From positions 1 through 42,119 of the forward strand of contig JAHDPQ010000009.1 of assembly GCA_018434245.1 (NCBI GenBank): a stretch of DNA of 42,119 nt, read 5' to 3'. This document shows, piece after piece, positions 6,850-32,354 of this stretch (positions within the stretch are counted from its first letter, which is position 1; every line of letters begins with the position of its first letter). Made by a program: the position numbers and the translations under genes. The notes below the pieces were generated by a model, which saw nothing but the letters and a program-made list of their open reading frames with translations, was not told where the DNA came from and made no database searches. The stretch comes from Oscillospiraceae bacterium (GTDB lineage: Bacteria > Bacillota > Clostridia > Oscillospirales > Ruminococcaceae).

Positions 6850-7452
6850 GTAGGCCTGCTCAAAGAGGAGGAAGGAAAGATCTTGCTGGAGGATCAGGAG
6901 ATTACCAACTTTACCCCCAGAGAGGTAATGGACTGCGGAGTTTCCCACATTCCCGAGAACAGGCAGACGGAGGGCCTTGTGCTAGAACTGAATATCGAGA
7001 AAAACTTTATTCTCGACCGCTATCACCATGCCGAGGTTAAGAAAAATCGCTGGATGCTTTCGTGGGACAGGATTCAAAAGATGTCGGCAGAGCTGATTGA
7101 AAAGTATAACATCAAAATTCCGTCCGGCAAGGAAAAGGCCTCCTCCTTATCGGGGGGAAACCAGCAGGAGGTGGTCATCGCCAGAACCCTCAAGAAAAAG
7201 GCCAAACTGCTGCTGGCTGTCCACCCCACCAGAGGGGTAGACGTGGGTGCCATAGAATTTATTCACCAGTCCATTCTGGAGGCAAAAGAAAATGGCTGCG
7301 GAGTCCTTCTGTTTTCTGCCGATTTGGACGAGGTGCTGTCTCTCAGCGACAGAATCGGGGTCATGTATAGTGGCAAACTAATGAAAGAGTTTTCCAAGGA
7401 CCAATTCAATGTGGATGAAATTGCCAAGGCTATGCTGGGTTCGGTATCCTAG
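6850..7452 (+). pseudogene. Remnant of nucleoside/sugar ABC transporter ATPase (C-terminal half-domain)
   Basis: The sequence encodes only the last about 200 residues of a duplicated RbsA/NupO-type ATPase (about 510 residues when complete). Recognisable are GLLKEEEGKILLEDQEIT, VSHIPENRQTEGLVLELNIEKN, the signature SLSGGNQQEVVIARTL and LLLAVHPTRGVDVGAIEFIH. The last form, with His replacing the Walker B Glu, is usual in the second domain of nucleoside-type importers. The Walker A motif and the whole first ATPase domain are missing, and homology begins at about 6850. No permease or binding-protein gene lies next to it. It is read as a deletion remnant stranded between the atp and eut operons. 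A short expressed product from 6883 is possible but could not power transport. Confidence 0.8.
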
Positions 7453-7589
7453 AAGGGAACCTGCCGCAAGCTGTGCAAATTGCCGGAGCCGTCCCCCGGA
7501 GATGTGCCGGACTGGATTCAATTGAGGATTCTGCTCGAACGAAAGCACATTCTTGGCAGTATTGGATCTTGAATACCACAAACCCCAAG

Positions 7590-7621
7590 AAAAATTCCCG
7601 GCTACGGCCGGGAATTTTTTT
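7590..7621. terminator. Bidirectional terminator between ABC remnant and eut operon
   Basis: A 13-bp stem (7590-7602 with 7607-7619) closes on a TACG loop and has A-tract and T-tract flanks on both sides. It ends the minus-strand eut transcript, 25 bases past the last stop, and can stop plus-strand transcription through the ABC remnant. The 7453-7589 stretch holds no gene I can support. Confidence 0.9.
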
Positions 7622-7646
7622 GTGTGTGAGGGGTAGAAGCACCCTC

Positions 7647-8195
7647 TCAAATCAACTGATGGAACAACTCCTCCGACGGCGAGGGGATGACGCAGTTGGA
7701 AATGACGTGGCCTTTTTCCTGGGCTTCTTCCAGCCCGGCCTCCACCGCCGCCTGCACAGCGCTGACACTGCCGCAAAGGGTCACGAAGGATTTTCCCCCG
7801 ATGCCCATCCCCAGACGCATTTCGATCAGCTCAATCTGGGCGGCCTTGGCGGCGGCATCGGCGCAGGTAATGGCAGAGGCGATGCTGAAAAACTCCATGA
7901 CGCCCAACGCGTCCCGGCTCTGCACCTCCCGGGTGCCGTTGATAGCCGGTATCAGCTGGGGATGCACGCTGGACACCACCAGGTGGTTGACCATAAAGTG
8001 CCCGGCGCACTGCATTCCCGCCTGTACCGAGGCTTTGACTGCACCCACATCTCCCGCCACCAGCACAATGAATTTGCCCGGGCAGGCAGCTTTGGAAAAC
8101 AGCAGCTGAACCTGTGCAGCCTTGATCATACAGTCGGTTGTCTCGATTCCCTTGGCGATGCTGTTCAGCTCGATTAGTCCAACGGTGGTAATCAT
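7647..8195 (-). CDS. pduT: Tandem-BMC shell protein, PduT-like, with Cys pore motif
   Basis: This is a trimer-forming (BMC-T) microcompartment shell protein of 182 residues with two BMC folds. The first begins ITTVGLIELNSIAKGIETTD and the second ALGVMEFFSIASAITCADAA. The first domain contains KAACPGKFIVLVAGDVGAV, like the PduT motif whose Cys residues hold a 4Fe-4S cluster at the trimer axis. ATG at 8195 overlaps the pduS stop (ATGA) and follows GGGGGAA; the open frame starts 15 bases earlier at a TTG. It is the last gene of the locus. Coupling to PduS suggests electron transfer across the shell. The PduT assignment is from motif and context. Confidence 0.85.
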   Translation of the reverse strand: MITTVGLIELNSIAKGIETTDCMIKAAQVQLLFSKAACPGKFIVLVAGDVGAVKASVQAGMQCAGHFMVNHLVVSSVHPQLIPAINGTREVQSRDALGVMEFFSIASAITCADAAAKAAQIELIEMRLGMGIGGKSFVTLCGSVSAVQAAVEAGLEEAQEKGHVISNCVIPSPSEELFHQLI

Positions 8196-12148: not shown

Positions 12149-12439
12149 CTATTCGGCAGTATTCAGGCGGGGCAGAATGAACTCCACTTCCTGATGGGGG
12201 CGGGGAATCACATGGACCGAAACAAGCTCACCTACACGTTGGGCAGCGGCTGCGCCTGCGTCGGTGGCGGCTTTGACAGCGCCCACATCACCGCGGATCA
12301 TCACGGTGACCAGCCCTCCGCCTACGTGCTCTTTGCCAATGAGGGTGACATTGGCGGCTTTGACCATGGCGTCGGCCGCCTCAATGGAGCCGACCAGACC
12401 TTTGGTTTCGATCATACCCAGTGCATTCATGTTGGACAT
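12149..12439 (-). CDS. eutM: BMC hexameric shell protein EutM (copy 1)
   Basis: This is a single-BMC hexamer-forming shell protein of 96 residues. It has the canonical pattern [40 protein letters not shown] and [15 protein letters not shown] at 12439 follows GGGAGG; the open frame from 12475 lacks a signal. The 77 residues from ALGMIETK to PRPH are identical to the copy at 21442-21723 while the DNA carries many synonymous changes. It is placed between eutE and eutT, followed by a large stem-loop. Small metabolites pass the hexamer pore. Confidence 0.95.
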
Positions 12440-12488
12440 ACTATATTCCTCCCAATTGATTAGTGATGGAAACAAATCGCTTTAACCT

Positions 12489-21441: not shown

Positions 21442-21723
21442 TTATCCGATCCGAGGCAAAACTCCCTCTACTTCGTCGTGGGGGCGGGGGATGACATGGA
21501 CCGATACCAGTTCGCCCACCCGCTGGGCCGCCGCTGCACCCGCATCGGTTGCCGCCTTGACGGCGCCTACATCTCCGCGGATCATAACAGTGACCAGTCC
21601 ACCGCCTACATGCTCTTTGCCGATTAGGGTGACGTTGGCCGCCTTTACCATGGCGTCGGCCGCTTCGATCGAGCCGACCAATCCTTTTGTTTCAATCATT
21701 CCCAGTGCTGTTGTAATGGCCAT
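21442..21723 (-). CDS. eutM: BMC hexameric shell protein EutM (copy 2)
   Basis: This is a single-BMC shell protein of 93 residues. From ALGMIETK to PRPH (77 residues) it is identical to the protein at 12149-12439; only the N-terminal few residues and the tail ([11 protein letters not shown]) differ. ATG at 21723 follows GGAGG. It lies between the SAP-tailed BMC gene and eutJ. Two near-identical EutM proteins in one operon suggest dosage rather than functional difference. Confidence 0.95.
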
Positions 21724-21740
21724 TATGATACCTCCATTCG

Positions 21741-22502
21741 TTATTGACGATCTTGGGTTTCATAAGCTTTGTAAATATCCTGCAAAAGCGCTTCCCGATT
21801 GGCATATTTGATTTCTTCGGGAGCGAGGGTTTTGTGGGGAAGCTTGCGCAGCAGGGAGCGGAGCTGTGTCACCTTCATGGATTCTAGTTCCTCCCGAGTT
21901 TTACGCACCCGTGCATCCCCCAAGGTTTGAGTCCAAGGCGCGGGATCCTCCCCGTCAGCTTCTGCCGGTGTCTCCTGTGGCTCCTCCACAGCTAGGGGAG
22001 CTTCCAACGGGGCTGTTAACAGCTCTGGTTCCGGTTGGGCCTGCGGGAGTAAATCCGGTACAGGTTCCACTTCCGGCTCGACCTGTGGGGCTAAGTCCGG
22101 CACAGGTTCCACTTCCGGCTCGACCTGTGGGGCTAAGTCCGGCACAGGTTCCACTTCTGGCTCGGACTGCGGGGCTAAGTCCGGTGCAGGCTCTTCCACC
22201 GCCAGAACTTCCTCTAAGGGAGGAGAGCTTGCTCCTTTTTCCCGGAGCATGGTGGCTACTTCGCCGTGGAGCCGGGGAATTACGTGGGAGGAAAGCACCG
22301 TTCCCACCCTGGCAGCCGCTGTTCTTCCGGCATCCACCGCGGCCTGAACAGCGCCTACATCTCCGGTAACCAGAACGGTCATTAAACCGCCGCCGGTTCG
22401 CTCCTTGCTCAGCAAGGTGACGTTGGCTGCCTTTAACATAACATCCGCAGCTTCAATCGAAGCTAATAGGCCGTTGGTTTCAATCATTCCTATCGCTTCC
22501 AT
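21741..22502 (-). CDS. BMC shell protein with repeat linker and SAP-like C-terminal domain (EutK-like architecture)
   Basis: The product has about 253 residues in three parts. Residues about 1-90 are a BMC domain ([52 protein letters not shown]). Residues about 95-195 are an acidic, Pro-rich linker with a 14-residue repeat of the form [14 protein letters not shown], three to four copies. Residues about 200-253 are a small basic-helical domain ([20 protein letters not shown], then [18 protein letters not shown]), which resembles SAP or Rho N-terminal nucleic-acid-binding folds. Enteric EutK has a BMC domain plus a winged-helix-like tail. ATG at 22502 follows AAGGATG; ATG at 22511 is also possible. 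It lies 11 bases after eutL. Confidence 0.85.
22049..22195 (-). repeat. 42-bp in-frame tandem repeat encoding the acidic linker
   Basis: Units start at 22049 (degenerate), 22091, 22133 and 22175 (truncated/degenerate), spaced exactly 42 bases. The two central units are almost identical. Each encodes 14 residues of the pattern [14 protein letters not shown]. Length can change by slipped pairing without breaking the frame. Confidence 0.92.
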
Positions 22503-22513
22503 AGGCGGCATCC

Positions 22514-23335: not shown

Positions 23336-23380
23336 AAAAAAGCCCAAGGAAAAATCCAAACGTGGATTTTCCTTGGGCTT
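23336..23380 (-). terminator. Intrinsic terminator downstream of eutW, part of antitermination element
   Basis: On the minus strand, AAGCCCAAGGAAAATCC (23380-23364) pairs with the complementary arm 23357-23340 around a short ACGTTT-type loop, followed by a TTTTTT tract. The 17-bp helix is strong. The 5-prime arm overlaps the second ANTAR hairpin, so the two structures exclude one another. Confidence 0.92.
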
Positions 23381-23418
23381 CGTTGCCTTTTCTTCCAATA
23401 TACGCCGTTGCATATTGG
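23376..23418 (-). promoter_or_regulatory. Paired ANTAR-binding hairpins (P1/P2) for EutV antitermination
   Basis: P1 (23418-23395): arms CCAATATGC and GTATATTGG form nine pairs (one G-U) around loop AACGGC. P2 (23387-23376): GGC and GCC close loop AACGAA. Both hexaloops have A at position 1 and G at position 4, the rule for ANTAR RNA targets. The spacer is seven bases. P2 shares bases with the terminator 5-prime arm, so EutV binding should prevent termination into eutL and the rest of the locus. Confidence 0.88.
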
Positions 23419-23423
23419 CGACT

Positions 23424-24893
23424 CTATTCCATTGTCAAAGCTTCCGTGTCGTTGATAAAGTCAAAGAAGATGCTGGTTCCCTGAGAGGAGCTGTCGATCT
23501 TCATGGTTCCACAGAGCTTATCCTTGACCAGACTGCGCACCAGCTTGAGGCCTAGGCTTTCCTCCCGCTGGGTGTGATTTTGTCGAAGGCCGACGCCGTT
23601 GTCGGCAATTCGGATGGCTGCGTAACGCCCCTCGCAGGAAATCAAGATGGTGATGCGGCCTTCTTTTCTGCCCACAAACCCGTGCTTGATGGAGTTTTGC
23701 AGCAGCTCGTTGACAATCATGGCAATGGCTGTTGCGATATCGGACCGGGAGTAAAAGCTGTCCCCCCGCAGCTCAATTTCCAGATCAAAGCCTTCGGGCA
23801 TGCTGTAGTTTTTGGTGTTGTTGATCATCCGCCACAGCATTTCCTTCATATCAATGAGATCTACACCTTTTTGCACCATAATTTCGTGGGTGAGGGAGAT
23901 GCTGAAGATGCGGCTGATGATTTCGTGGCAGACCCGGCGCACTTCCGGGTGGGCGGAGCGCCGCGCCTGCAATCGAATCAGACTGACAATGGTTTGCAGG
24001 TTGTTTTTTACCCGGTGATGAATTTCATCGATGGCGGCGGACTTGAGAATAAGCTCCTTCTCTTTAATTTTATTCTCGGTTGTGTCTTTTATGAGTAAAA
24101 CAACACCCAGACACTGGTCATCCTCTTCGATGGTGGCGGCCACTACGTTTAGGATGTACTTGCCGATGGTGACTTCCTTGTGGTCGATGTGACGCTGCTG
24201 CATCACATCATCCATGGTGTATTCCCCTAGGACCAGATTGTCGAAGGACATGCCCACAATGTCGTCCTGATAGCCGATGTTTTTATACAGCCGCTTTGCG
24301 TTTTCGTTGGCGAAGATAGAAATCCCCATGGTGTTGAAGTGGATCATCGCTTCGTTGATGTGGGCGGCGATGTTGTACAGCTCTTTTTTGCTGCTGGTGT
24401 GGGGCAGAGCATTTGGGGCAAAAGGCGGTTCCGTTACATGGCTGTTGCCCCGCATACTGCGCTCCATAATCAAAACGCCAATGATTCGGTTGTCATCACT
24501 TTTGATGGCGCTGACGTTTTGCCGGATGAGGATGTTCTCGCTGACCACTGCCTTCAGCTCCCGGGAGGGCACGCCGATTTCCAGTGTGCGGAACACCCCC
24601 GGCTCATTGTGGCGGTACATGAACTCCCCCAAAATATCCCGGCTGTAGAAGGTGTTTTTCGGGGGGCTGCACTGGGCTACCACCACGGCATACCGGTTGT
24701 CCCGGGTGAGGCAATCGATAAAAATATCGCAACCTTCCAGTTCGCTGATGACAGGTAGGGTATGACTTACCTCAATCAGCTTTTGAATGTCACTGTCGCG
24801 AATGTTGGTATGTTTTTTGCAAACCTGCGATAATCTCTTATCGTTCAGCGATAAGACAGAATGATAGTTTGGGCAATCCGGGCTATTGTACAC
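23424..24893 (-). CDS. eutW: EutW ethanolamine-sensing histidine kinase
   Basis: The product is a 489-residue soluble kinase of the HisKA_2/HWE-like type. Residues about 40-150 look like the ligand-sensing domain, about 175-275 like a PAS domain (IHFNTMGISIFANENAKRLY), and from 287 the dimerisation segment DEIHHRVKNNLQTIVSLIRL carries the phosphoacceptor His292/293. An ATPase domain follows with the N-box IVNELLQNSIKHGF and a G-box IRIADNGVGL. EutW phosphorylates EutV when ethanolamine is present. The frame is open from a GTG at 24893 within eutV (49-base overlap); no ATG occurs near, so the start is uncertain. It ends five bases before the P1 hairpin. Confidence 0.93.
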   Translation of the reverse strand: MYNSPDCPNYHSVLSLNDKRLSQVCKKHTNIRDSDIQKLIEVSHTLPVISELEGCDIFIDCLTRDNRYAVVVAQCSPPKNTFYSRDILGEFMYRHNEPGVFRTLEIGVPSRELKAVVSENILIRQNVSAIKSDDNRIIGVLIMERSMRGNSHVTEPPFAPNALPHTSSKKELYNIAAHINEAMIHFNTMGISIFANENAKRLYKNIGYQDDIVGMSFDNLVLGEYTMDDVMQQRHIDHKEVTIGKYILNVVAATIEEDDQCLGVVLLIKDTTENKIKEKELILKSAAIDEIHHRVKNNLQTIVSLIRLQARRSAHPEVRRVCHEIISRIFSISLTHEIMVQKGVDLIDMKEMLWRMINNTKNYSMPEGFDLEIELRGDSFYSRSDIATAIAMIVNELLQNSIKHGFVGRKEGRITILISCEGRYAAIRIADNGVGLRQNHTQREESLGLKLVRSLVKDKLCGTMKIDSSSQGTSIFFDFINDTEALTME

Positions 24894-25414
24894 TCCTGAT
24901 CCATGGCCACCTTTCTCATATAGCTGTACGCTTCCAGCTCGCTCATCTTCTTCGTTTCCATCAGGATTCCCTTTGCCCGGTCTATGTACTTCCGCGATTC
25001 CAGTGCCGTGCGGGTCTTTTCGAACTCACGGTTCATTTTTTCGATTTTGCTCTGCTTGGCCAGCGCGATCTCGATGGCGGGAATGAGAGAGTTCTCATCC
25101 ACGGGTTTGATCAGATACCCCATGACATCGGCGTTTTTTGCCTGTTCCAGCATACTTTTTTCGTTGTAGGCCGTCAACATCAGCACACAGCGGGCCAACT
25201 TTTGTTCATGGATGATTTCTACCGCCTTCAAACCGTCCAAAACCGGCATCTTAATATCCATCAGAACCAAATCCGGTAGGGTGTTACGGCAGACTTCAAT
25301 GGCCTCGACCCCGTCCGAGGCTTCACCCACTACGCTGTATCCGTTGAGCTCCAGAATCTCTCTGACATCCATTTTGATAATGGGTTCGTCATCTGCAATT
25401 ACTATTCTGAACAT
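24845..25414 (-). CDS. eutV: EutV response regulator with ANTAR RNA-binding domain
   Basis: The product has 189 residues. The receiver domain (1-120) carries acidic D8/D9, phosphoacceptor Asp53 (VLMDIKMP), Thr81 and Lys103. A helical linker follows (about 115-138), then the ANTAR domain from about 140 (SRKYIDRAKGILMETKKMSELEAYSYMRKVAMD). Phosphorylated EutV binds paired hairpins to block terminators. ATG at 25414 follows AGGGGAAG by five bases. Overlap with eutW suggests coupled translation. Its own promoter lies about 70 bases upstream. Confidence 0.96.
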   Translation of the reverse strand: MFRIVIADDEPIIKMDVREILELNGYSVVGEASDGVEAIEVCRNTLPDLVLMDIKMPVLDGLKAVEIIHEQKLARCVLMLTAYNEKSMLEQAKNADVMGYLIKPVDENSLIPAIEIALAKQSKIEKMNREFEKTRTALESRKYIDRAKGILMETKKMSELEAYSYMRKVAMDQECTIARIAQTIILSYR

Positions 25415-25482: not shown

Positions 25483-25513
25483 ATTATAGTATCATAAAAT
25501 ACAAACATGTCAA
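25483..25513 (-). promoter_or_regulatory. Promoter of eutVW
   Basis: TTGACA (25513-25508) and TATAAT (25488-25483) are spaced 19 bases on the minus strand, longer than ideal. A -10 on the overlapping GATACT-type sequence is an alternative. It lies downstream of a terminator, so eutVW is separate from the riboswitch gene. Confidence 0.65.
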
Positions 25514-25575: not shown

Positions 25576-25634
25576 GAAAAAAAGAACAGCTGATTATGCG
25601 AAAAATCAAAGGATTTTCCAGCATAATCGGCTGC
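25576..25634 (-). terminator. Terminator after the riboswitch-controlled gene
   Basis: On the minus strand CAGC and GATTATGC (from 25633) pair with GCATAATC and GCTG (to 25587) around an inner GAAAATC/GATTTTTC helix, followed by TTCTTTTTTT. It ends the 25671-26150 transcript before eutVW. Confidence 0.85.
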
Positions 25635-25670
25635 TTGTTAGTATTTTCTGATTCGAAACGGCTGGGTCCC

Positions 25671-26150
25671 TTAGCTGATGAAACAGAGAAGCTGTACGTC
25701 TTGTGCGCTTTGCTGGGCTTTTTCCAGCAGACAGGTTTGGATTTTGCGGCACAGAACATCGGCTCGCTCCTCTACGGCGGAGGGGTTGCCTGCCGAGGCG
25801 GAATCCTGTGGCGTGACAAAGTTAAACATATGGGTTGTCTTGATAGCCCGGGGAATGACTGCCTGAGAAGGGTCGATGCCGATGTACATCACCGGCAGCT
25901 GAGTGGGGCCCGATAGCATGTTGACCACCACGTCGGCCTGCTCCAGACAGGCGTTAAAATCCAGCTGGTTGTGGATGGAAAGGGGAAGCACATTGGTAAA
26001 ATTGCGCAACCGGCTCACCATGTGCTGAACTGTCGCAGGTACTTCGGAAGAGGCATGTTCCGTATATAAAACGACTGTTGTAAAGCTGGTGTCTGCCTCT
26101 GCAGGCACAAGGATTCCGCTGCTTAGGGCTGCCACGGTTGGACGAGACAT
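25671..26150 (-). CDS. Unrecognised 159-residue protein under cobalamin riboswitch control
   Basis: I do not recognise this protein. It is soluble in appearance, with no signal peptide or membrane helix. It has alternating beta/alpha character: TTVVLYTEHASSEVPATVQH, ADVVVNMLSGPTQLPVMYIGIDPSQAVIPRAIKTTHMF, then a helical tail (AVEERADVLCRKIQTCLLEKAQQ). Two Cys residues lie in the tail. ATG at 26150 follows AGGAGGG, which is part of a sequestering hairpin of the upstream cobalamin riboswitch. The gene has its own consensus promoter and terminator, directly upstream of eutVW. In Listeria and Enterococcus a B12-riboswitch RNA with ANTAR hairpins sits in the eut locus; here a protein-coding gene is controlled instead. 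The function is unknown; a B12-linked role in eut control or cobamide handling is inference. Confidence 0.85.
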   Translation of the reverse strand: MSRPTVAALSSGILVPAEADTSFTTVVLYTEHASSEVPATVQHMVSRLRNFTNVLPLSIHNQLDFNACLEQADVVVNMLSGPTQLPVMYIGIDPSQAVIPRAIKTTHMFNFVTPQDSASAGNPSAVEERADVLCRKIQTCLLEKAQQSAQDVQLLCFIS

Positions 26151-26155
26151 AAAAA

Positions 26156-26444
26156 ATCCCTCCTGAATCTACAATCCGGCAGGAAGGATTTGCAATATAT
26201 GCATAATGATATAACCGGCTACAGACCTGCCGGTTACACACACCCTCCATACACCGTAGAGTTTTGCGGTGACCAATAACAGGCAGGTCTTCTGACTCCG
26301 GGATCAACACAACGCTACAGCCTTCCCAAGCTAGCTCAGTGGCAGATGTAGCAGCTCCCCCAATACAGCGGCGGGACCGTTCAGGAATTACACCTGATTC
26401 CCTTTTCATCTTTTGTTTTCATCAAACAAAAAGAACCTGTTATT
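26156..26444 (-). ncRNA. Cobalamin (AdoCbl-type) riboswitch with translational expression platform
   Basis: The aptamer spans about 26444-26275. A perfect 8-bp P1 (AATAACAG with CTGTTATT) closes it. Conserved pieces follow in order: AAAAGGGAATCAGGTG, ACGGTCCCGCCGCTGT, GCCACTG, GGGAAGG and GAGTCAGAAGACCTGCC. In the platform, ATCCTTCCTG (26189-26180) can pair over all ten bases with CAGGAGGGAT (26165-26156), which holds the Shine-Dalgarno. A competing stem around TAACCGGC...GCCGGTTA contains GGCAGGTCT, complementary to the aptamer AGACCTGCC. This indicates control of translation, presumably off when cobalamin is bound. Confidence 0.93.
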
Positions 26445-26457
26445 TTTAGTTTTGTAT

Positions 26458-26487
26458 ATTATAGCACAAAGTTTTGGAATTTGTCAA
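26458..26487 (-). promoter_or_regulatory. Promoter of the riboswitch transcript
   Basis: Perfect TTGACA (26487-26482) and TATAAT (26463-26458) with 18-base spacing. Transcription should start about seven bases downstream, right before P1 of the aptamer. Confidence 0.88.
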
Positions 26488-26598: not shown

Positions 26599-27684
26599 TT
26601 AAATCCGGATGGACTGCCGAACATCCTTGAGGTTGGCCACAGAATTGCGGGCCACCAGAACAGGTGCCACAGATAGGGTGACCTGATTTCCGCTTTCGTT
26701 GGACTCGTAGGCATCGATGATCATCTGGGTCGCCCGCTGGCCCACTAGGTATCCCGATAACCGAACGGTGGTCAGCTGAGGGGTTACCATCATAGCAATG
26801 GGGATGTCGTCAAACCCCACGACAGAGATGTCTTCGGGAACCCGCACTCCGCTCTGGACCAGTCCCGCGATGATACCGCAGGCTATCAAATCGTTTAAAG
26901 CGATAACTGCCGTATACTGTTTGCTGTGGAGCAACATCTTTTTGGCTAGCACCATGCCGATGTTGTATTCGTAAAGTCCCTCATCCACATCGTTTTCGTA
27001 GGGGACTGAGATGACGTCGTCGGCACCGAATTCCAGCCCGTGCATCGCCATGGCAAAACGGCAACCGTCCACCCGCTGATGCCGGGAGGATCGGCTCAGG
27101 GGAGGGGTGAGAAAGGCGATCTGCTGATGCCCCTGAGAGATCAAATATTCCGTTGCGATTTGCGCCGCCTTAAACATATCCGCCGACGCGTTGAGTGCGC
27201 TTCCTAATGGGGGGAAGTTGGATTCAAAGACACAGGCGTGACCGCCTTTTGCGATATACTGCTCCACCACATCGGAGTGGTCGTCCACCGAGCAGAGCAT
27301 CAGGCAGCTGATCCGCTTGTTCATCATGTCCCGGATGTATTTCCGCTCCAGGCTGGGGTCCCGCTGGGAGGCAAAAACCATGGGTGTGTACCCCCGCTTG
27401 CTGGCAATGTGCTCGATTCCCATGACGATCGGGCTAAAAAACGGATTTTGAAAGGAGGTGATGATGATGCCGATGGATGGGTTGATGTTGGTCCGCAAAA
27501 TCCGTCCATAAGGATTTGGGGAGTAGCCCAGCTTCTGGACAGCATCCAAAATCCTTTGGCGAAGCTCGTCGCTCACCGGATAATCGCTGTTACTCAGCAC
27601 CCGCGAAACGGTGGCGGTGGAACATTGTGCGGTTTTTGCAACATCGTTGATGACAATTTTGCCACAGCGATTGGGTTGCTTCAT
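26599..27684 (-). CDS. LacI-family transcriptional regulator
   Basis: The product has 361 residues. The N-terminal helix-turn-helix and hinge read VINDVAKTAQCSTATVSRVL and LDAVQKLGYSPNPYGRILRT. The periplasmic-binding-like core begins SIGIIITSFQNPFFSPIVMG and includes VIALNDLIACGIIAGLVQSG and ISVVGFDDIPIAMMVTPQLTTV. The start is ATG at 27684 after AGGGTGTGA; the open frame begins 11 codons upstream. It is divergent from the plus-strand transporter operon, the likely target. A perfect inverted repeat on its own -35 suggests autoregulation. The ligand is probably a sugar or sugar phosphate of the operon; that is inference. Confidence 0.93.
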   Translation of the reverse strand: MKQPNRCGKIVINDVAKTAQCSTATVSRVLSNSDYPVSDELRQRILDAVQKLGYSPNPYGRILRTNINPSIGIIITSFQNPFFSPIVMGIEHIASKRGYTPMVFASQRDPSLERKYIRDMMNKRISCLMLCSVDDHSDVVEQYIAKGGHACVFESNFPPLGSALNASADMFKAAQIATEYLISQGHQQIAFLTPPLSRSSRHQRVDGCRFAMAMHGLEFGADDVISVPYENDVDEGLYEYNIGMVLAKKMLLHSKQYTAVIALNDLIACGIIAGLVQSGVRVPEDISVVGFDDIPIAMMVTPQLTTVRLSGYLVGQRATQMIIDAYESNESGNQVTLSVAPVLVARNSVANLKDVRQSIRI

Positions 27685-27740
27685 TGCAATCACACCCTGC
27701 ATTGATTGATTTTGCACTTTTTGCAGATAATATTTTATAA

Positions 27741-27779
27741 ATTATAACACAGCCATTCCGACGATGCAAGAAACTTGCA
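27741..27779 (-). promoter_or_regulatory. lacI-type gene promoter with overlapping palindrome
   Basis: TTGCAT (27769-27764) and TATAAT (27746-27741), spacing 17, precede the regulator gene. The perfect inverted repeat TGCAAG-AAA-CTTGCA (27765-27779) covers the -35, a good position for repression by the LacI protein itself. Confidence 0.7.
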
Positions 27780-27857
27780 GAAAAATGATAGAAACTTTTC
27801 TACAGAACTTTCTACTCCGATTTAAGAAATTTGTGCAAAAAGAATTAATTAAAAGTA

Positions 27858-27887
27858 TTGACAAGAAGTCAGGTGATTCAGTATAAT
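27858..27887 (+). promoter_or_regulatory. Promoter of the transporter/catabolic operon
   Basis: TTGACA (27858-27863) and TATAAT (27882-27887), spacing 18. It lies on the strand opposite the regulator promoter and about 515 bases before the first gene. Confidence 0.8.
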
Positions 27888-27893
27888 AGTCGC

Positions 27894-28408
27894 ATCAAGA
27901 TAAAATCACAAATGTTGGAAGCATCCAAATTGTGCTAATCTACTATAAAATATTGCTAATATTACTTTGGCGGCATTTACTGCGGCGCTCGTCGTTTTCG
28001 ACGGCACATTTTAACAGAAGAGTTAGCACAAAGGGAAAATAAGACTGTATGTCTGCTTTCTAATAGAAATCGATTACTAATTTATGGTGATACGAGAATG
28101 AAGTTGCACAAAAACTCAGAAGTTCCTGCAGTAGGTTTTTCAAAAAAAATTCGAACCTAATAGCCTGTTTTGTTTGTCACTTCTATAACAATGGCAATTC
28201 ATAATTGCTTTACGCTTCTACTATTTCTACTATTAAAGTGTGAAGCGTAGAAGGCTCCCAGAGAGTATCTTTCACGATTACCCAGAAAGGACAGGCATTC
28301 TTCGTCTGAAAAGGCGATCAACGATCTGCGTTCCATGCTTGTATGCAAGACCGACCTGTTTACGCTTGAGTTTGGCATAAGCCAAAACAAATAAAGGAGG
28401 ACTCTACT
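27894..28408 (+). other. Long untranslated leader of the transporter operon
   Basis: No gene is supported here. Structures seen are TGTGCTAA (about 27930) complementary to TTAGCACA (about 28022), enclosing a CGTCG-TTTT-CGACG stem, and TACGCTTC paired with GAAGCGTA (about 28210-28250). A palindrome AATCGATT (28068-28075) within an AT-rich context could be a LacI-type operator. No known riboswitch class was recognised. An alternative promoter further downstream cannot be excluded. Confidence 0.45.
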
Positions 28409-29524
28409 GTGAACAAAAAGCTTTTTGCGCTAATTAGCCTTGCGCTGGTATTGGCCATGGCACTGGGCGCCTGCGGATCCAAACCCGCTCAACCTGCCCC
28501 GTCCCAAGCACCGGCTTCTGCGGCAGAACCTGCCCCCGAAGCATCTGGTGATCAGCCCGCCGCAGAACCTGAGCTGGAAAAAACCAACCGCCTGGTTGTC
28601 TATAGCGCCGGTGCAACTGATCAGAACGAAATGATTCAGAAGATGTGGTCCGAGCTTCACCCCGACATTGAGCTGGAAGTAGTTTCTGCCGGCAGCGGTG
28701 AGCTTCAGAACCGGATCGTCGCCGAAGCGGGCAACCCCCAGGGCGATGTGATGATGGGCGGTTCCTACGCTGTTTACATGGCGCTGGAAGATCAGCTCAC
28801 CCCTTACGTTTCTCCCAACGCCGCCAATTGTCTGGAGGAGTTCGTCTCTAAAAACGATAAGTTTACCGCCATTCAGATCAACGTCAACACCATCATCGTC
28901 AACAACGCTATGCTCAAAAATCTGGGCGTGGAAGTGACCGGCTGGAACTCCCTGCTGGACGAAAAACTCAAGGGCAACATCATCTTTGCCGATCCCTCTT
29001 CCTCTTCCTCCGGCCGGGAGCACGTGGTCAATATGTTGGCTGCCATGAACACTACCGGCAACCTTGACGATGGATGGGAGTTCGTTGAGAAATACGTGAA
29101 GAATCTGGACGGCAAGGTATCCTCCAGCTCTTCTGCCATCTACACCGGCGTGGCAAACGGCGAATATGCCGTGGGCATCACCAACGAAGAAAAAGTGATC
29201 CAGAACATGGTGGCCGGCGCTGATGTCAGTGCTGTTTATGCCGAAGAAGGCATCACCCTGCGCACCTCTTACATGGGCATCATCAACGGATGTGCCAACG
29301 AATACAATGCCCGCCTGTTTGTGGATTTCATGACCTCCAAGGAGTACCAGCAGGCCGCTACCGACGAGCTGTACCAGCGCTCGGTACACAAGGACGTTGC
29401 GTTTAATGTCGATGGCATTGCTCCTACCAGCGAGCTGAACTCCATCGAATATCCCACCGAGTGGGTGAACGCCAACGCGGACAACCTGAAAACTAAGTTC
29501 CAGGATCTGCTGACCAACGTGTAG
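28409..29524 (+). CDS. ABC transporter substrate-binding lipoprotein, family 1 (FbpA/AfuA-like)
   Basis: The product has 371 residues. The signal peptide ends with the lipobox ALGAC (Cys about 23), followed by a Pro/Ala/Glu linker to about 58. The binding core starts RLVVYSAGATDQNEMIQKMW, with EVVSAGSGELQNRIVAEAGNPQGDVMMGGS and, later, EYAVGITNEEKVIQNMVAGA. This class binds ferric ion, aminoethylphosphonate or hexose phosphates. Iron-ligand tyrosine pairs are not obvious, and the operon context favours a phosphorylated sugar. GTG start at 28409 follows AAAGGAGG by eight bases. It is first in the operon. Confidence 0.9.
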   Translation: MNKKLFALISLALVLAMALGACGSKPAQPAPSQAPASAAEPAPEASGDQPAAEPELEKTNRLVVYSAGATDQNEMIQKMWSELHPDIELEVVSAGSGELQNRIVAEAGNPQGDVMMGGSYAVYMALEDQLTPYVSPNAANCLEEFVSKNDKFTAIQINVNTIIVNNAMLKNLGVEVTGWNSLLDEKLKGNIIFADPSSSSSGREHVVNMLAAMNTTGNLDDGWEFVEKYVKNLDGKVSSSSSAIYTGVANGEYAVGITNEEKVIQNMVAGADVSAVYAEEGITLRTSYMGIINGCANEYNARLFVDFMTSKEYQQAATDELYQRSVHKDVAFNVDGIAPTSELNSIEYPTEWVNANADNLKTKFQDLLTNV

Positions 29525-29554
29525 GCTAAAACCCATTATAAATCGTGATTGCCT

Positions 29555-29581
29555 GTCCGCCGCCCTACAAGGGCGGCGGAC
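29555..29581 (+). other. GC-rich stem-loop between binding protein and ATPase genes
   Basis: GTCCGCCGCCC and GGGCGGCGGAC form a perfect 11-bp stem with a TACAA loop and no U-tract. Such elements often protect the upstream binding-protein mRNA and lower downstream expression. Confidence 0.85.
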
Positions 29582-29599
29582 GCTATGGAGGGGGATACA

Positions 29600-30703
29600 A
29601 TGGCTGTTGCTATCCATGTTAACCATGTCAAAAAACAATACGAAGATAACGTTGTAATACATAATCTTTCTGTGGACATCCAAAAAGGGGAACTGTTTAC
29701 CCTGCTGGGGCCCAGCGGCTGCGGAAAAACAACTCTGCTACGCATGATTGCCGGCTTTAACTCCATCGAAGCCGGAACCATTGCCTTTGACGACAAAGTC
29801 ATCAATAACATTCCCGTTCACAAGCGGAACTTTGGCATGGTATTCCAGAGCTATGCAATTTTCCCGAACATGACGGTCTATCGCAACGTGGAATACGGAC
29901 TCAAGAACAAGAAGCTTTCCAAGGAAGAAATCCAAAAGCGGGTGGAAGAAGTTCTGGAGATCGTGCAGCTCACCGAGTACAAAGACCGCTATCCCGACAA
30001 GCTTTCCGGCGGTCAGCAGCAGCGGGTGGCTCTGGCCCGGGCCGTGGTGGTCCGCCCTCAGGTGCTGCTGATGGATGAGCCCCTTTCCAACCTGGACGCC
30101 AAGCTCCGTCTGGAAATGCGCACGGTGATCAGCCAGCTGCAAAAGGACCTGGGCATCACCACCGTATACGTCACCCACGATCAGGAAGAGGCCCTTGCCA
30201 TTTCTGACCGCATTGCCGTGATGAACAAAGGGGATATCTACCATTGCGATACCCCGGAGCGCATCTATTCCCGCCCCTACAACACCTTTGTGGCCAACTT
30301 TATCGGCAGTTCCAGCATGATTGACGGCGTGGTGTCGTCGGTGGGAGAAACCACCAAAATCCGCATGGAGACCGGGCTGGAAATCGAGATGAACAATTTG
30401 GTTCCTCTGGAAGCAGGCCGGGAAGTTCTGGTGGCCGTCCGCCCCGAAGAATTCGTCATCGTCGAAGAAGGCCAGGGGATGAAGGGAACCGTAAAGCTCA
30501 AGCAGTTCCTGGGCAAGTGCATCCAGTACGAGGTGTGCTTTGACAACGGAATCGTCTGCGAAGTATCCTCCGACACCAACTCCGCCCCCAGAATCTACGA
30601 GGCAGGGGAGACGATCTACATGTCGGTTAACACCAAGCGCATCAATGTATTTGATAAAACCGCCAACACTACTTTAATTGAAGGAGTGTACAGCAATGTT
30701 TAA
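29600..30703 (+). CDS. ABC transporter ATP-binding protein (FbpC/PotA/AfuC-type)
   Basis: The product has 367 residues. It has Walker A GPSGCGKTT (37-45), the Q-loop in NFGMVFQSYAIFPNMTV, signature KLSGGQQQRVALARA, Walker B VLLMDEPLSNLD and the switch His in VYVTHDQEEALA. A C-terminal TOBE-type domain follows from about 240 (LVAVRPEEFVIVEEG). ATG at 29600 follows GGAGGGGG; the longer open frame from 29549 runs through the hairpin. It overlaps the permease start by eight bases. It energises import with the flanking genes. Confidence 0.95.
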   Translation: MAVAIHVNHVKKQYEDNVVIHNLSVDIQKGELFTLLGPSGCGKTTLLRMIAGFNSIEAGTIAFDDKVINNIPVHKRNFGMVFQSYAIFPNMTVYRNVEYGLKNKKLSKEEIQKRVEEVLEIVQLTEYKDRYPDKLSGGQQQRVALARAVVVRPQVLLMDEPLSNLDAKLRLEMRTVISQLQKDLGITTVYVTHDQEEALAISDRIAVMNKGDIYHCDTPERIYSRPYNTFVANFIGSSSMIDGVVSSVGETTKIRMETGLEIEMNNLVPLEAGREVLVAVRPEEFVIVEEGQGMKGTVKLKQFLGKCIQYEVCFDNGIVCEVSSDTNSAPRIYEAGETIYMSVNTKRINVFDKTANTTLIEGVYSNV

Positions 30704-32354
30704 GAAAGGCGTCCGCGTAGACTTCTGGAGCTTTATTACACTGATCTCCCTGATCTTTTTTGGCATGTTTTTGGTTTACCCGGTCAGCAGGTTGGTGATC
30801 AATGCCTTTCAGACGCAGGAGGCGGCGGGCGTATTTTCCCTGGATAACTTTGTCAAATTCTTTTCCAGAGCCTATTACCGCAAGTCCATCTGGCAGAGTG
30901 TAGTGGTCACCTTTTCCGCTACGGCACTGGTTATTGTCATCGGGGTGGCGCTGGGATACATTACCACCACCTTCCAGATTAAGGGCATCAAGCTCATCAA
31001 CATCTTAATCATCATCTCTATGTTCTCGCCCCCCTTTATTGGCGCCTATTCCTGGATTCTGATGCTGGGGCGGGCAGGAGTCATCACCAAGTTCTTCAAT
31101 AACGTGTTGGGCATCCAATTGCCGTCCATCTACGGATTCCGGGGAATCCTGCTGGTCTTTACCCTCAAGCTCTTTCCCTACATCTATATGTATACCAAGG
31201 GAGCCCTGAAAAAGGTGGATAAGTCCTTGGGAGAAGCCGCCGAAAGTCTGGGTTATTACGGACTGAAAAAGGTGCTGAAGGTCAGCTTGCCTCTGATTAC
31301 CCCCACCATTTTGGCAGGCGGCTCCATTGTGTTTCTGCGGGCCTTTGCAGACTACGGAACTCCCCGCCTCATCGGCGAAGGATACACCGTCATGCCGGTT
31401 CTGGTCTACAACGAGTGGCTGAGCGAAACCGGATCCAACGCATATTTTGCGTCCACCATCGCCTTTATTATGATTATGGTTGCCATTGTGGTCTTTGCCC
31501 TGCAAAACTTTTTCAGCCGCAAAAACTACAATATGAATATGCTCAACCCGCCCACGCCCAAGAAGATTACAGGCATCGGCGCGTTTTTTGCCCACTTCTA
31601 CGTCTATGCCCTGACTTTTCTCTCTGTGTTGCCGACTATTTACATCACCGTAATTTCTTTCCGCAATTTTACCAACGGCTCTATCTTTGCCGAAGGTTAT
31701 TCCTTTGCCAACTACGCCGCCGCATTGGAAAAAGCAGGCGCGTCCATTGCCAACACCTTTAAGTTTGGCATTGCCGCTATTATTGTGATGGTTCTGCTGG
31801 GCACTATGTTTGCATACATCACCGTGCGGAGAAGAAACGTCTTTTCCCGCTTTCTGGATGCCTGCGTCCAGCTGCCCTACGTCATTCCCGGAACCATCTT
31901 TGGTTTGATGCTGCTGATTTCGTACAACTCCGGCTTCCTGGTGCTCACCGGCGGATCGACTCTGATCATCATCGCCTACATTGTGCGCAGAATGCCCTAC
32001 ACCGTGCGTTCCAGCGCCGCCATTTTGCGGCAGATCAACCCCAGCATTGAAGAAGCTTCTCTTTCTCTGGGATATGCGCCCATGGCCACTTTCTTTAAAG
32101 TCACCATGCCTGCCATGGTTTCCGGCATTGTCTCGGGAGCTATCCTCAGCTGGATCACCACCATTCAGGAGCTGTCTTCCACCCTGATGCTGTACACCAG
32201 CAAAACCTCCACCATGTCCACCGCCATTTTTTCAGAGGTCAACCGGGCGGCCTACGGCACGGCGTCGGCCCTTTCCACCATTTTGACGGTGACCATGGTT
32301 GCATCCCTGCTGCTGTTCTTTAAGCTGACAGGCAATGCGGATATTGATATGTAA
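30696..32354 (+). CDS. ABC transporter permease, fused two-domain type (FbpB/AfuB-like)
   Basis: The product has 552 residues with about twelve membrane segments in two homologous halves. Each half has an EAA-type loop: LGEAAESLGYYGLKKVLKVSLPLITPTI near 180 and IEEASLSLGYAPMATFFKVTMPAMVSGI near 450. Such fused permeases accompany family-1 binding proteins for iron, phosphonates or hexose phosphate. ATG at 30696 follows GAAGGAG by nine bases. It is followed by the HAD phosphatase after 35 bases. Confidence 0.95.
   Translation: MFKKGVRVDFWSFITLISLIFFGMFLVYPVSRLVINAFQTQEAAGVFSLDNFVKFFSRAYYRKSIWQSVVVTFSATALVIVIGVALGYITTTFQIKGIKLINILIIISMFSPPFIGAYSWILMLGRAGVITKFFNNVLGIQLPSIYGFRGILLVFTLKLFPYIYMYTKGALKKVDKSLGEAAESLGYYGLKKVLKVSLPLITPTILAGGSIVFLRAFADYGTPRLIGEGYTVMPVLVYNEWLSETGSNAYFASTIAFIMIMVAIVVFALQNFFSRKNYNMNMLNPPTPKKITGIGAFFAHFYVYALTFLSVLPTIYITVISFRNFTNGSIFAEGYSFANYAAALEKAGASIANTFKFGIAAIIVMVLLGTMFAYITVRRRNVFSRFLDACVQLPYVIPGTIFGLMLLISYNSGFLVLTGGSTLIIIAYIVRRMPYTVRSSAAILRQINPSIEEASLSLGYAPMATFFKVTMPAMVSGIVSGAILSWITTIQELSSTLMLYTSKTSTMSTAIFSEVNRAAYGTASALSTILTVTMVASLLLFFKLTGNADIDM

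What the first reader, a model, noticed from the sequence alone, without database searches (positions are those of the whole stretch)
25671..26444. Cobalamin riboswitch controlling an unknown protein next to eutVW
The aptamer, a matching P1, a ten-pair anti-Shine-Dalgarno hairpin and a competing stem can all be drawn. The controlled gene encodes 159 residues I cannot place. In Listeria and Enterococcus the B12 riboswitch in the eut locus makes a small RNA with ANTAR hairpins that traps EutV. Here no ANTAR hairpins were found in the transcript; instead a protein is made only when B12 is low. It might be an anti-eut regulator or a cobamide-handling protein.
Basis: partly seen in the sequence, partly recalled or inferred. 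Interest (0 to 1): 0.72.

Follow-up and report, generated by a model that had tools for sequence, protein, structure and literature searches.

The report
B12 riboswitch, orphan gene, beside eutVW
Next to the genes that switch on ethanolamine use, this bacterium carries a vitamin B12-sensing RNA switch that controls one small protein with no recognised relative in our searches; the switch looks real, but what the protein does is open.

Summary
A full-length cobalamin riboswitch (RF00174, 124 bits) with a perfect sigma-70 promoter lies upstream of a coding-like 159-aa ORF. A strong terminator follows, then eutV with its own promoter, then eutW. One correction: the "anti-Shine-Dalgarno" hairpin ends in six U's and looks at least as much like the riboswitch's terminator; the three other Cbl riboswitches of this genome are also followed by terminator-like hairpins.

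EutV is an ANTAR response regulator. A canonical two-hexaloop ANTAR site overlapping a terminator lies between eutW and eutL and is conserved in a relative. No such site was found in the riboswitch transcript, so by that criterion it is not an EutX/Rli55 sponge; the scan is of limited sensitivity. The aptamer matches the class-I family, whereas EutX/Rli55 are reported as class IIb.

The protein is an orphan: no Pfam, NCBIfam, PHROG or PDB match, and no credible homologue in the genome samples, plasmids, phages or viral contigs searched. It looks soluble and acidic. Its link to eut can be neither confirmed nor refuted elsewhere. A protein made at low B12 that restrains EutVW is the boldest reading, but it rests on position alone.

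The parts
26458..26487 (-). sigma-70-type promoter of the riboswitch unit, TTGACA-18-TATAAT with TG before the second hexamer
   Evidence: 12 of 12 consensus matches; 18 promoter-like sites in the 6.5 kb against 6.8 in shuffles, so only the perfect ones carry weight
26265..26455 (-). cobalamin riboswitch aptamer, RF00174, complete model 1-189
26223..26239 (-). switching hub b: can pair with a (26290-26282, 3' side of the aptamer), c (26219-26209) or d (26183-26176)
   Evidence: duplex energies -16.3, -16.0, -15.8
26154..26191 (-). 12-pair hairpin d:e that holds the Shine-Dalgarno sequence (26164-26158) and is followed by six U (26156-26151): riboswitch terminator and/or SD-hiding hairpin
   Evidence: dG -15.2; 5 of 100 shuffles of the 320 nt gave any such hit
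25671..26150 (-). orphan gene, 159 aa, 17.2 kDa, pI 5.2, no transmembrane stretch predicted by hydropathy
   Evidence: no family
25577..25635 (-). strong hairpin with seven-U tract: terminator of the riboswitch unit
   Evidence: dG -25.1
25486..25513 (-). separate promoter of eutV, TTGACA-16-TACTAT
   Evidence: 10 of 12
24845..25414 (-). eutV: response regulator with ANTAR domain
   Evidence: Response_reg 2.9e-27, ANTAR 7.8e-20
23424..24893 (-). eutW: histidine kinase, GAF_PdtaS + HisKA_2 + HATPase_c
23336..23418 (-). ANTAR antitermination site: P1 hexaloop AACGGC (9 pairs), 7-nt linker, P2 hexaloop AACGAA (3 pairs) overlapping a terminator, upstream of eutL
   Evidence: 1 hit in the window, 0.15 per shuffled window; conserved in L007
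22514..23167 (-). eutL, first structural gene behind the ANTAR site
   Evidence: NF011934, 4e-113

Best explanation
A class-I-type cobalamin riboswitch with its own promoter controls a one-gene unit placed directly upstream of eutVW. When adenosylcobalamin is bound, the 12-pair hairpin over the Shine-Dalgarno sequence forms; it runs into six U's and stops transcription, and would also hide the ribosome site of any read-through RNA. When cobalamin is scarce, the RNA reads through to the strong terminator before eutV and a 159-residue soluble acidic protein is made. Shown here: aptamer, promoter, coding-like ORF, both terminator-like hairpins, separate eutV promoter, ANTAR site in front of eutL. 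Inferred: ligand, OFF direction, termination as the main mode (together about 0.8). Inferred from position only: the protein lowers EutVW output when the cofactor of ethanolamine ammonia-lyase is missing, doing as a protein what the EutX/Rli55 RNA does as an ANTAR decoy. The confidence given is for the whole chain including this last step.
For: Full RF00174 match; perfect promoter; codon usage of the ORF; terminator-like hairpin with U6 over the SD, and terminator-like hairpins after the three other Cbl riboswitches of the genome, two of which precede genes that look like cobalt transport (CbiM-like) and cobalamin synthesis (CbiD-like; both named by eye), as expected of OFF switches; EutV with ANTAR domain and an ANTAR site before eutL; no ANTAR pair in the riboswitch transcript; riboswitch next to eut genes also in G1023 and G139; review passages that EutX/Rli55 links B12 to EutV (PMC5821096; PMC8079631).
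Against: No homologue of the protein, so no conservation of riboswitch-gene-eutVW. A terminator and a second promoter separate the ORF from eutV. Minimum-energy folds are the same (b:c plus d:e) with and without the aptamer forced, and the forced fold is about 25-31 kcal/mol worse than the free one, so folding does not show a switch. No similarity of the protein to EutV, EutW or 21 other window proteins (hhalign probability at most 0.6 percent). G1023 and G139 show that eut-linked Cbl riboswitches need no such protein.
Confidence: 0.3

Rival explanations
1. The protein handles cobalamin or its precursors in the cytosol (trafficking, remodelling, supply to EutBC or the adenosyltransferase) and is made when cobalamin is scarce; its place beside eut reflects the B12 need of ethanolamine ammonia-lyase.
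For: The commonest use of Cbl riboswitches is control of cobalamin supply (passage in PMC11477304); the window holds a cobalamin adenosyltransferase gene (PF01923); the protein looks soluble.
Against: No match to any cobalamin family in Pfam or NCBIfam; not a transporter by hydropathy.
Confidence: 0.3
2. The ORF is a young or passing gene under a riboswitch, with a function unrelated to eut or none.
For: Found in no other genome searched; it lies at the edge of a block missing beside the same flank in a genus mate; codon score (0.138) is below that of 23 of the 24 training genes, the exception being the one entered out of frame.
Against: Good SD, correct frame, codon bias above all other frames, intact promoter and terminator.
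Confidence: 0.25
3. The working product is RNA: the read-through transcript, or read-through into eutVW, acts on eut, and the ORF is secondary.
For: EutX/Rli55 work as RNA; the unit points into eutVW; the scan for ANTAR sites misses sites (no hit in 9 of 12 and 7 of 11 eutV loci).
Against: No ANTAR pair even with relaxed loops [AG]..G..; a loop pattern without A1 gave 2 hits for 0.5 expected, one inside the aptamer and one in the ORF; strong terminator before eutV; no clear complementarity to the eutL leader, eutV or eutW start (6, 3 and 12 of 30 shuffles as strong).
Confidence: 0.12

Closest known systems
EutX (Enterococcus faecalis) / Rli55 (Listeria monocytogenes)
   Same: Cobalamin riboswitch unit with its own promoter beside eut genes under EutVW control; terminator-like hairpin after the aptamer and a second terminator further on; [quoted passage not shown]
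   Different: No ANTAR site found; the read-through RNA carries a 159-aa coding-like ORF; the aptamer fits RF00174 over its whole length, while EutX/Rli55 riboswitches are reported as class IIb (passage in PMC11477304).
Class-I cobalamin riboswitches (RF00174) before cobalamin or cobalt genes
   Same: Full aptamer, promoter, downstream terminator-like hairpin; three more in this genome.
   Different: The controlled gene belongs to no known family and sits beside eutVW.
AspocR of Listeria
   Same: A B12 riboswitch whose read-through RNA opposes a regulator (passage in PMC8079631).
   Different: AspocR acts as antisense RNA; here the opposite strand shows no coding-like gene under the unit.

Membership tests
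Cobalamin riboswitch RF00174 | covariance-model score above gathering, full length | tested here: met
   124.3 bits, 1-189 of 189; related clan families (e.g. the AdoCbl variant) are hidden by clan competition, so their scores were not seen
Cobalamin riboswitch RF00174 | binds adenosylcobalamin and lowers expression | not testable with these tools
   needs in-line probing and reporters
Cobalamin riboswitch RF00174 | expression platform that changes with aptamer state | tested here: inconclusive
   rival pairings exist, but minimum-energy folds do not differ
EutX/Rli55 ANTAR sponge RNA | tandem hexaloop hairpins with A1 and G4 in the read-through RNA | tested here: not met
   scan sensitivity limited
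EutX/Rli55 ANTAR sponge RNA | non-coding read-through RNA | tested here: not met
   159-aa ORF with SD and coding-like codons
EutX/Rli55 ANTAR sponge RNA | riboswitch-controlled terminator after the aptamer | tested here: inconclusive
   terminator-like hairpin present; B12 dependence not testable here
EutVW ANTAR two-component system | response regulator with ANTAR domain plus histidine kinase | tested here: met
EutVW ANTAR two-component system | dual-hexaloop site overlapping a terminator before eut genes, linker 5-12 nt | tested here: met
   linker 7 nt; 5-12 nt is from a passage of PMC3369931
Known cobalamin transport or synthesis protein (for the ORF) | family match | tested here: not met

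The most novel reading that the evidence does not exclude
A protein counterpart of EutX/Rli55: the riboswitch makes a small protein at low B12 that binds EutV or EutW and keeps ethanolamine genes off until the cofactor is present. The ANTAR decoy RNA would here be replaced by a protein.
Probability: 0.2. Interest if true: 0.75.

Novelty: new variant of a known kind. Interest (0 to 1): 0.42.

Why it matters
In the characterised Firmicutes, the need for B12 is fed into EutVW by a decoy RNA. A class-I riboswitch that instead makes a protein beside eutVW would be a second, independent solution to the same control problem, and would give a function to an orphan gene. If the protein is unrelated, the locus is an ordinary riboswitch with an orphan gene.

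Tried and rejected
Homologue hunts for the 159-aa protein, own genome counted where it was in the set: 1 of 41 relatives (own only); 0 of 8 and 0 of 19 genomes reached through EutV-like loci; 3 of 394 in the order sample at E 0.01 (own plus two); 1 of 396 family (own); 1 of 391 class (own); the samples overlap. The two weak order hits (E 0.002 and 0.004) hold stop codons inside the match, and the L105 one lies antisense to a 458-aa frame: taken as chance. Genome contigs: 61 pattern stretches, none a relative (needs a shared 8-residue word, so it reaches close relatives only). Viral contigs 7 stretches, none. Plasmids and phages none at E 0.1. PDB none at E 10.

AlphaFold2 on the single sequence: mean pLDDT 39.3, pTM 0.43, too poor to search with, so no fold search was run. 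hhalign of the single sequence against 23 window protein sets: best probability 0.6 percent. Antisense or trans-pairing to eut leaders: not above shuffles.

L5-L13 kissing loop: by eye, L5 UGUAAU can pair with AUUGCA (26198-26193), and GUAAUU with AAUUAC in L122, both just upstream of the terminator-like hairpin. No control was run, so it is not used as evidence.

Conservation of the order riboswitch-gene-eutVW: Rfam scan of 49 loci (36 of the 80 EutV-like loci kept, 11 of 11 other EutW loci of the class sample, 2 of 2 of the family sample) gave one Cbl riboswitch, in L122. Many loci are cut short by contig ends; L007, the closest (EutV 88 percent), has only 135 nt upstream of eutV. Whole-genome Rfam search found two Cbl riboswitches in L007's genome G415, neither next to eut in the stretches read.

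Full report
What is there. On the minus strand the window shows, in order: a LacI-type regulator (27717-26599); a consensus promoter (26487-26458); a complete cobalamin aptamer (26455-26265, 124.3 bits); a switching region; a 12-pair hairpin carrying the Shine-Dalgarno sequence and ending in six U's; a 159-aa ORF (26150-25671); a strong terminator (25635-25577); a second promoter (25513-25486); eutV and eutW; an ANTAR site and terminator (23418-23336); then eutL and further eut genes.

Is the gene real. The ORF frame scores 0.14 per codon with the window's own codon table, against -0.38 to 0.00 for the five other frames and -0.24 (sd 0.06) for 500 shuffles. One of the 24 training genes was entered out of frame, which blunts the table. 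The score is below the other 23 genes. The start has AGGAGGG 7 nt upstream. I take it as a translated gene, with less certainty than its neighbours.

How the switch may work. A hub at 26239-26223 can pair with the aptamer's 3' side (-16.3 kcal/mol), with 26219-26209 (-16.0) or with 26183-26176 (-15.8), and the last would break the hairpin over the SD (-16.6). That is the anatomy of a switch. But minimum-energy folds with and without the aptamer forced both end with the hub closed on itself and the SD hairpin formed; only intermediate lengths differ (hub on the aptamer at lengths 233-249 when free). Of 51 model pairs 43 were canonical and could be forced, and pseudoknot and ligand energy are not modelled. 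So folding leaves the direction open. It is inferred from the family: passages of PMC11477304 describe Cbl riboswitches as OFF switches. The hairpin has a U6 tract, and the three other Cbl riboswitches of this genome are followed by terminator-like hairpins 43 to 92 nt after the aptamer, the window's at 73 (3 to 8 of 100 shuffles of each stretch gave any hit). Hence termination is likely the main mode, with SD masking as a second lock.

The eut regulator. EutV has receiver and ANTAR domains. The site before eutL has hexaloops AACGGC and AACGAA and a 7-nt linker, with P2 overlapping the terminator, matching the description in passages of PMC3369931. In L007 (EutV 88 percent identical) both hairpins are kept. 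The strict scan hit 3 of 12 sources (window, L007, L015) and 4 of 11 others, of which L118, L124 and L127 hold convincing sites and L126 does not; it found none in L005, the eut locus of G139, and in L122 only a relaxed scan found one. So the scan misses sites, and 'no ANTAR site in the riboswitch transcript' (0 found with A..G.. and with [AG]..G.. loops) is good but not final. A looser pattern without A1 gave 2 hits for 0.5 expected, one inside the aptamer and one in the ORF.

Elsewhere. EutW relatives occur in 3 of 396 family genomes at E 1e-60 (own, G139, G116) and 12 of 331 class genomes at E 1e-50 (own and 11 more). Rfam scans of stretches around the 13 others gave one Cbl riboswitch: in G1023 (L122, 7215-7401), upstream of genes that look like eutS-eutP (by eye) and eutV-eutW, with no ORF of 60 aa or more on that strand between riboswitch and eutS. 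Its hairpin also ends in AUUUUUUAUG, and an ANTAR-like pair with one A-to-G change follows it (0.28 expected). A whole-genome search found a second case in G139, just after a eutQ-like gene, whose read-through has only short ORFs. So Cbl riboswitches beside eutVW-type eut loci recur in this class without the protein.

The protein. No match in Pfam, NCBIfam or PHROGs or PDB; no credible homologue in any set searched (counts in Tried and rejected). 17.2 kDa, pI 5.2, no hydrophobic stretch strong enough for a membrane helix. The single-sequence model is useless (pLDDT 39).

The block. In the genus mate G004 the flank from LacI into the transporter genes is 90.6 percent identical (window 26605-32324), but homology stops at the LacI stop codon and the contig ends 288 nt further on; the rest of the queried stretch (riboswitch, ORF) gave no match there, and EutW was not found in G004 (completeness 81). 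The unit thus lies on the variable side of that junction together with eut.

Comparison. Reviews (passages only: PMC5821096; PMC8079631) describe EutX/Rli55: a B12 riboswitch that ends transcription early with AdoCbl, and otherwise makes an RNA with an ANTAR site that traps EutV. PMC11477304 (passage) puts those riboswitches in class IIb. The window unit has a comparable place and layout but a full RF00174 aptamer, no ANTAR site found and a coding-like ORF. It works possibly like EutX, but is not a member. Four paper searches (listings) showed no report of a protein-coding riboswitch unit beside eutVW; the library lacks most subscription papers, including the 2014 Science reports.

Verdict. 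Real, modestly unusual, with an unproven and testable regulatory idea. Interest 0.42.

Noticed in passing
L122 (G1023) 7215-7775: Cbl riboswitch, terminator-like hairpin, then an ANTAR-like hairpin pair upstream of eutS-P-V-W: a possible class-I riboswitch version of EutX.
   Followed up: partly
L099 (G139) 7008-6821 and following: Cbl riboswitch just downstream of a eutQ-like gene, read-through RNA without ORFs over 49 aa and with two terminator-like hairpins; no ANTAR pair found.
   Followed up: partly
L096 (G000:C82) 4839-4543 (-): Another Cbl riboswitch of the same genome precedes a 98-aa ORF that holds only a DUF2179 domain, perhaps a remnant of a longer membrane protein.
   Followed up: partly
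window 26599-26605: Homology with the genus mate G004 (90.6 percent) stops at the LacI stop codon: edge of a block that includes the riboswitch unit and eut.
   Followed up: partly
window 6883-7452 (+): ORF matching only the latter part of an ABC transporter ATPase domain (PF00005 positions 68-133) between the ATP synthase genes and the eut block; maybe a fragment at the other edge.
   Followed up: no
window 21741-22511 (-): BMC shell protein with a long acidic, proline-rich repeat tail and a further C-terminal stretch.
   Followed up: no
window 12149-12475 and 21442-21723 (-): Two nearly identical small BMC shell proteins in one eut cluster.
   Followed up: no
L007 674-2126: The eutW frame appears split into two ORFs in the closest relative; may be an assembly error.
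   Followed up: no
window 27858-27887 (+): Second perfect TTGACA-18-TATAAT promoter, facing the transporter genes at 28409 onward.
   Followed up: no
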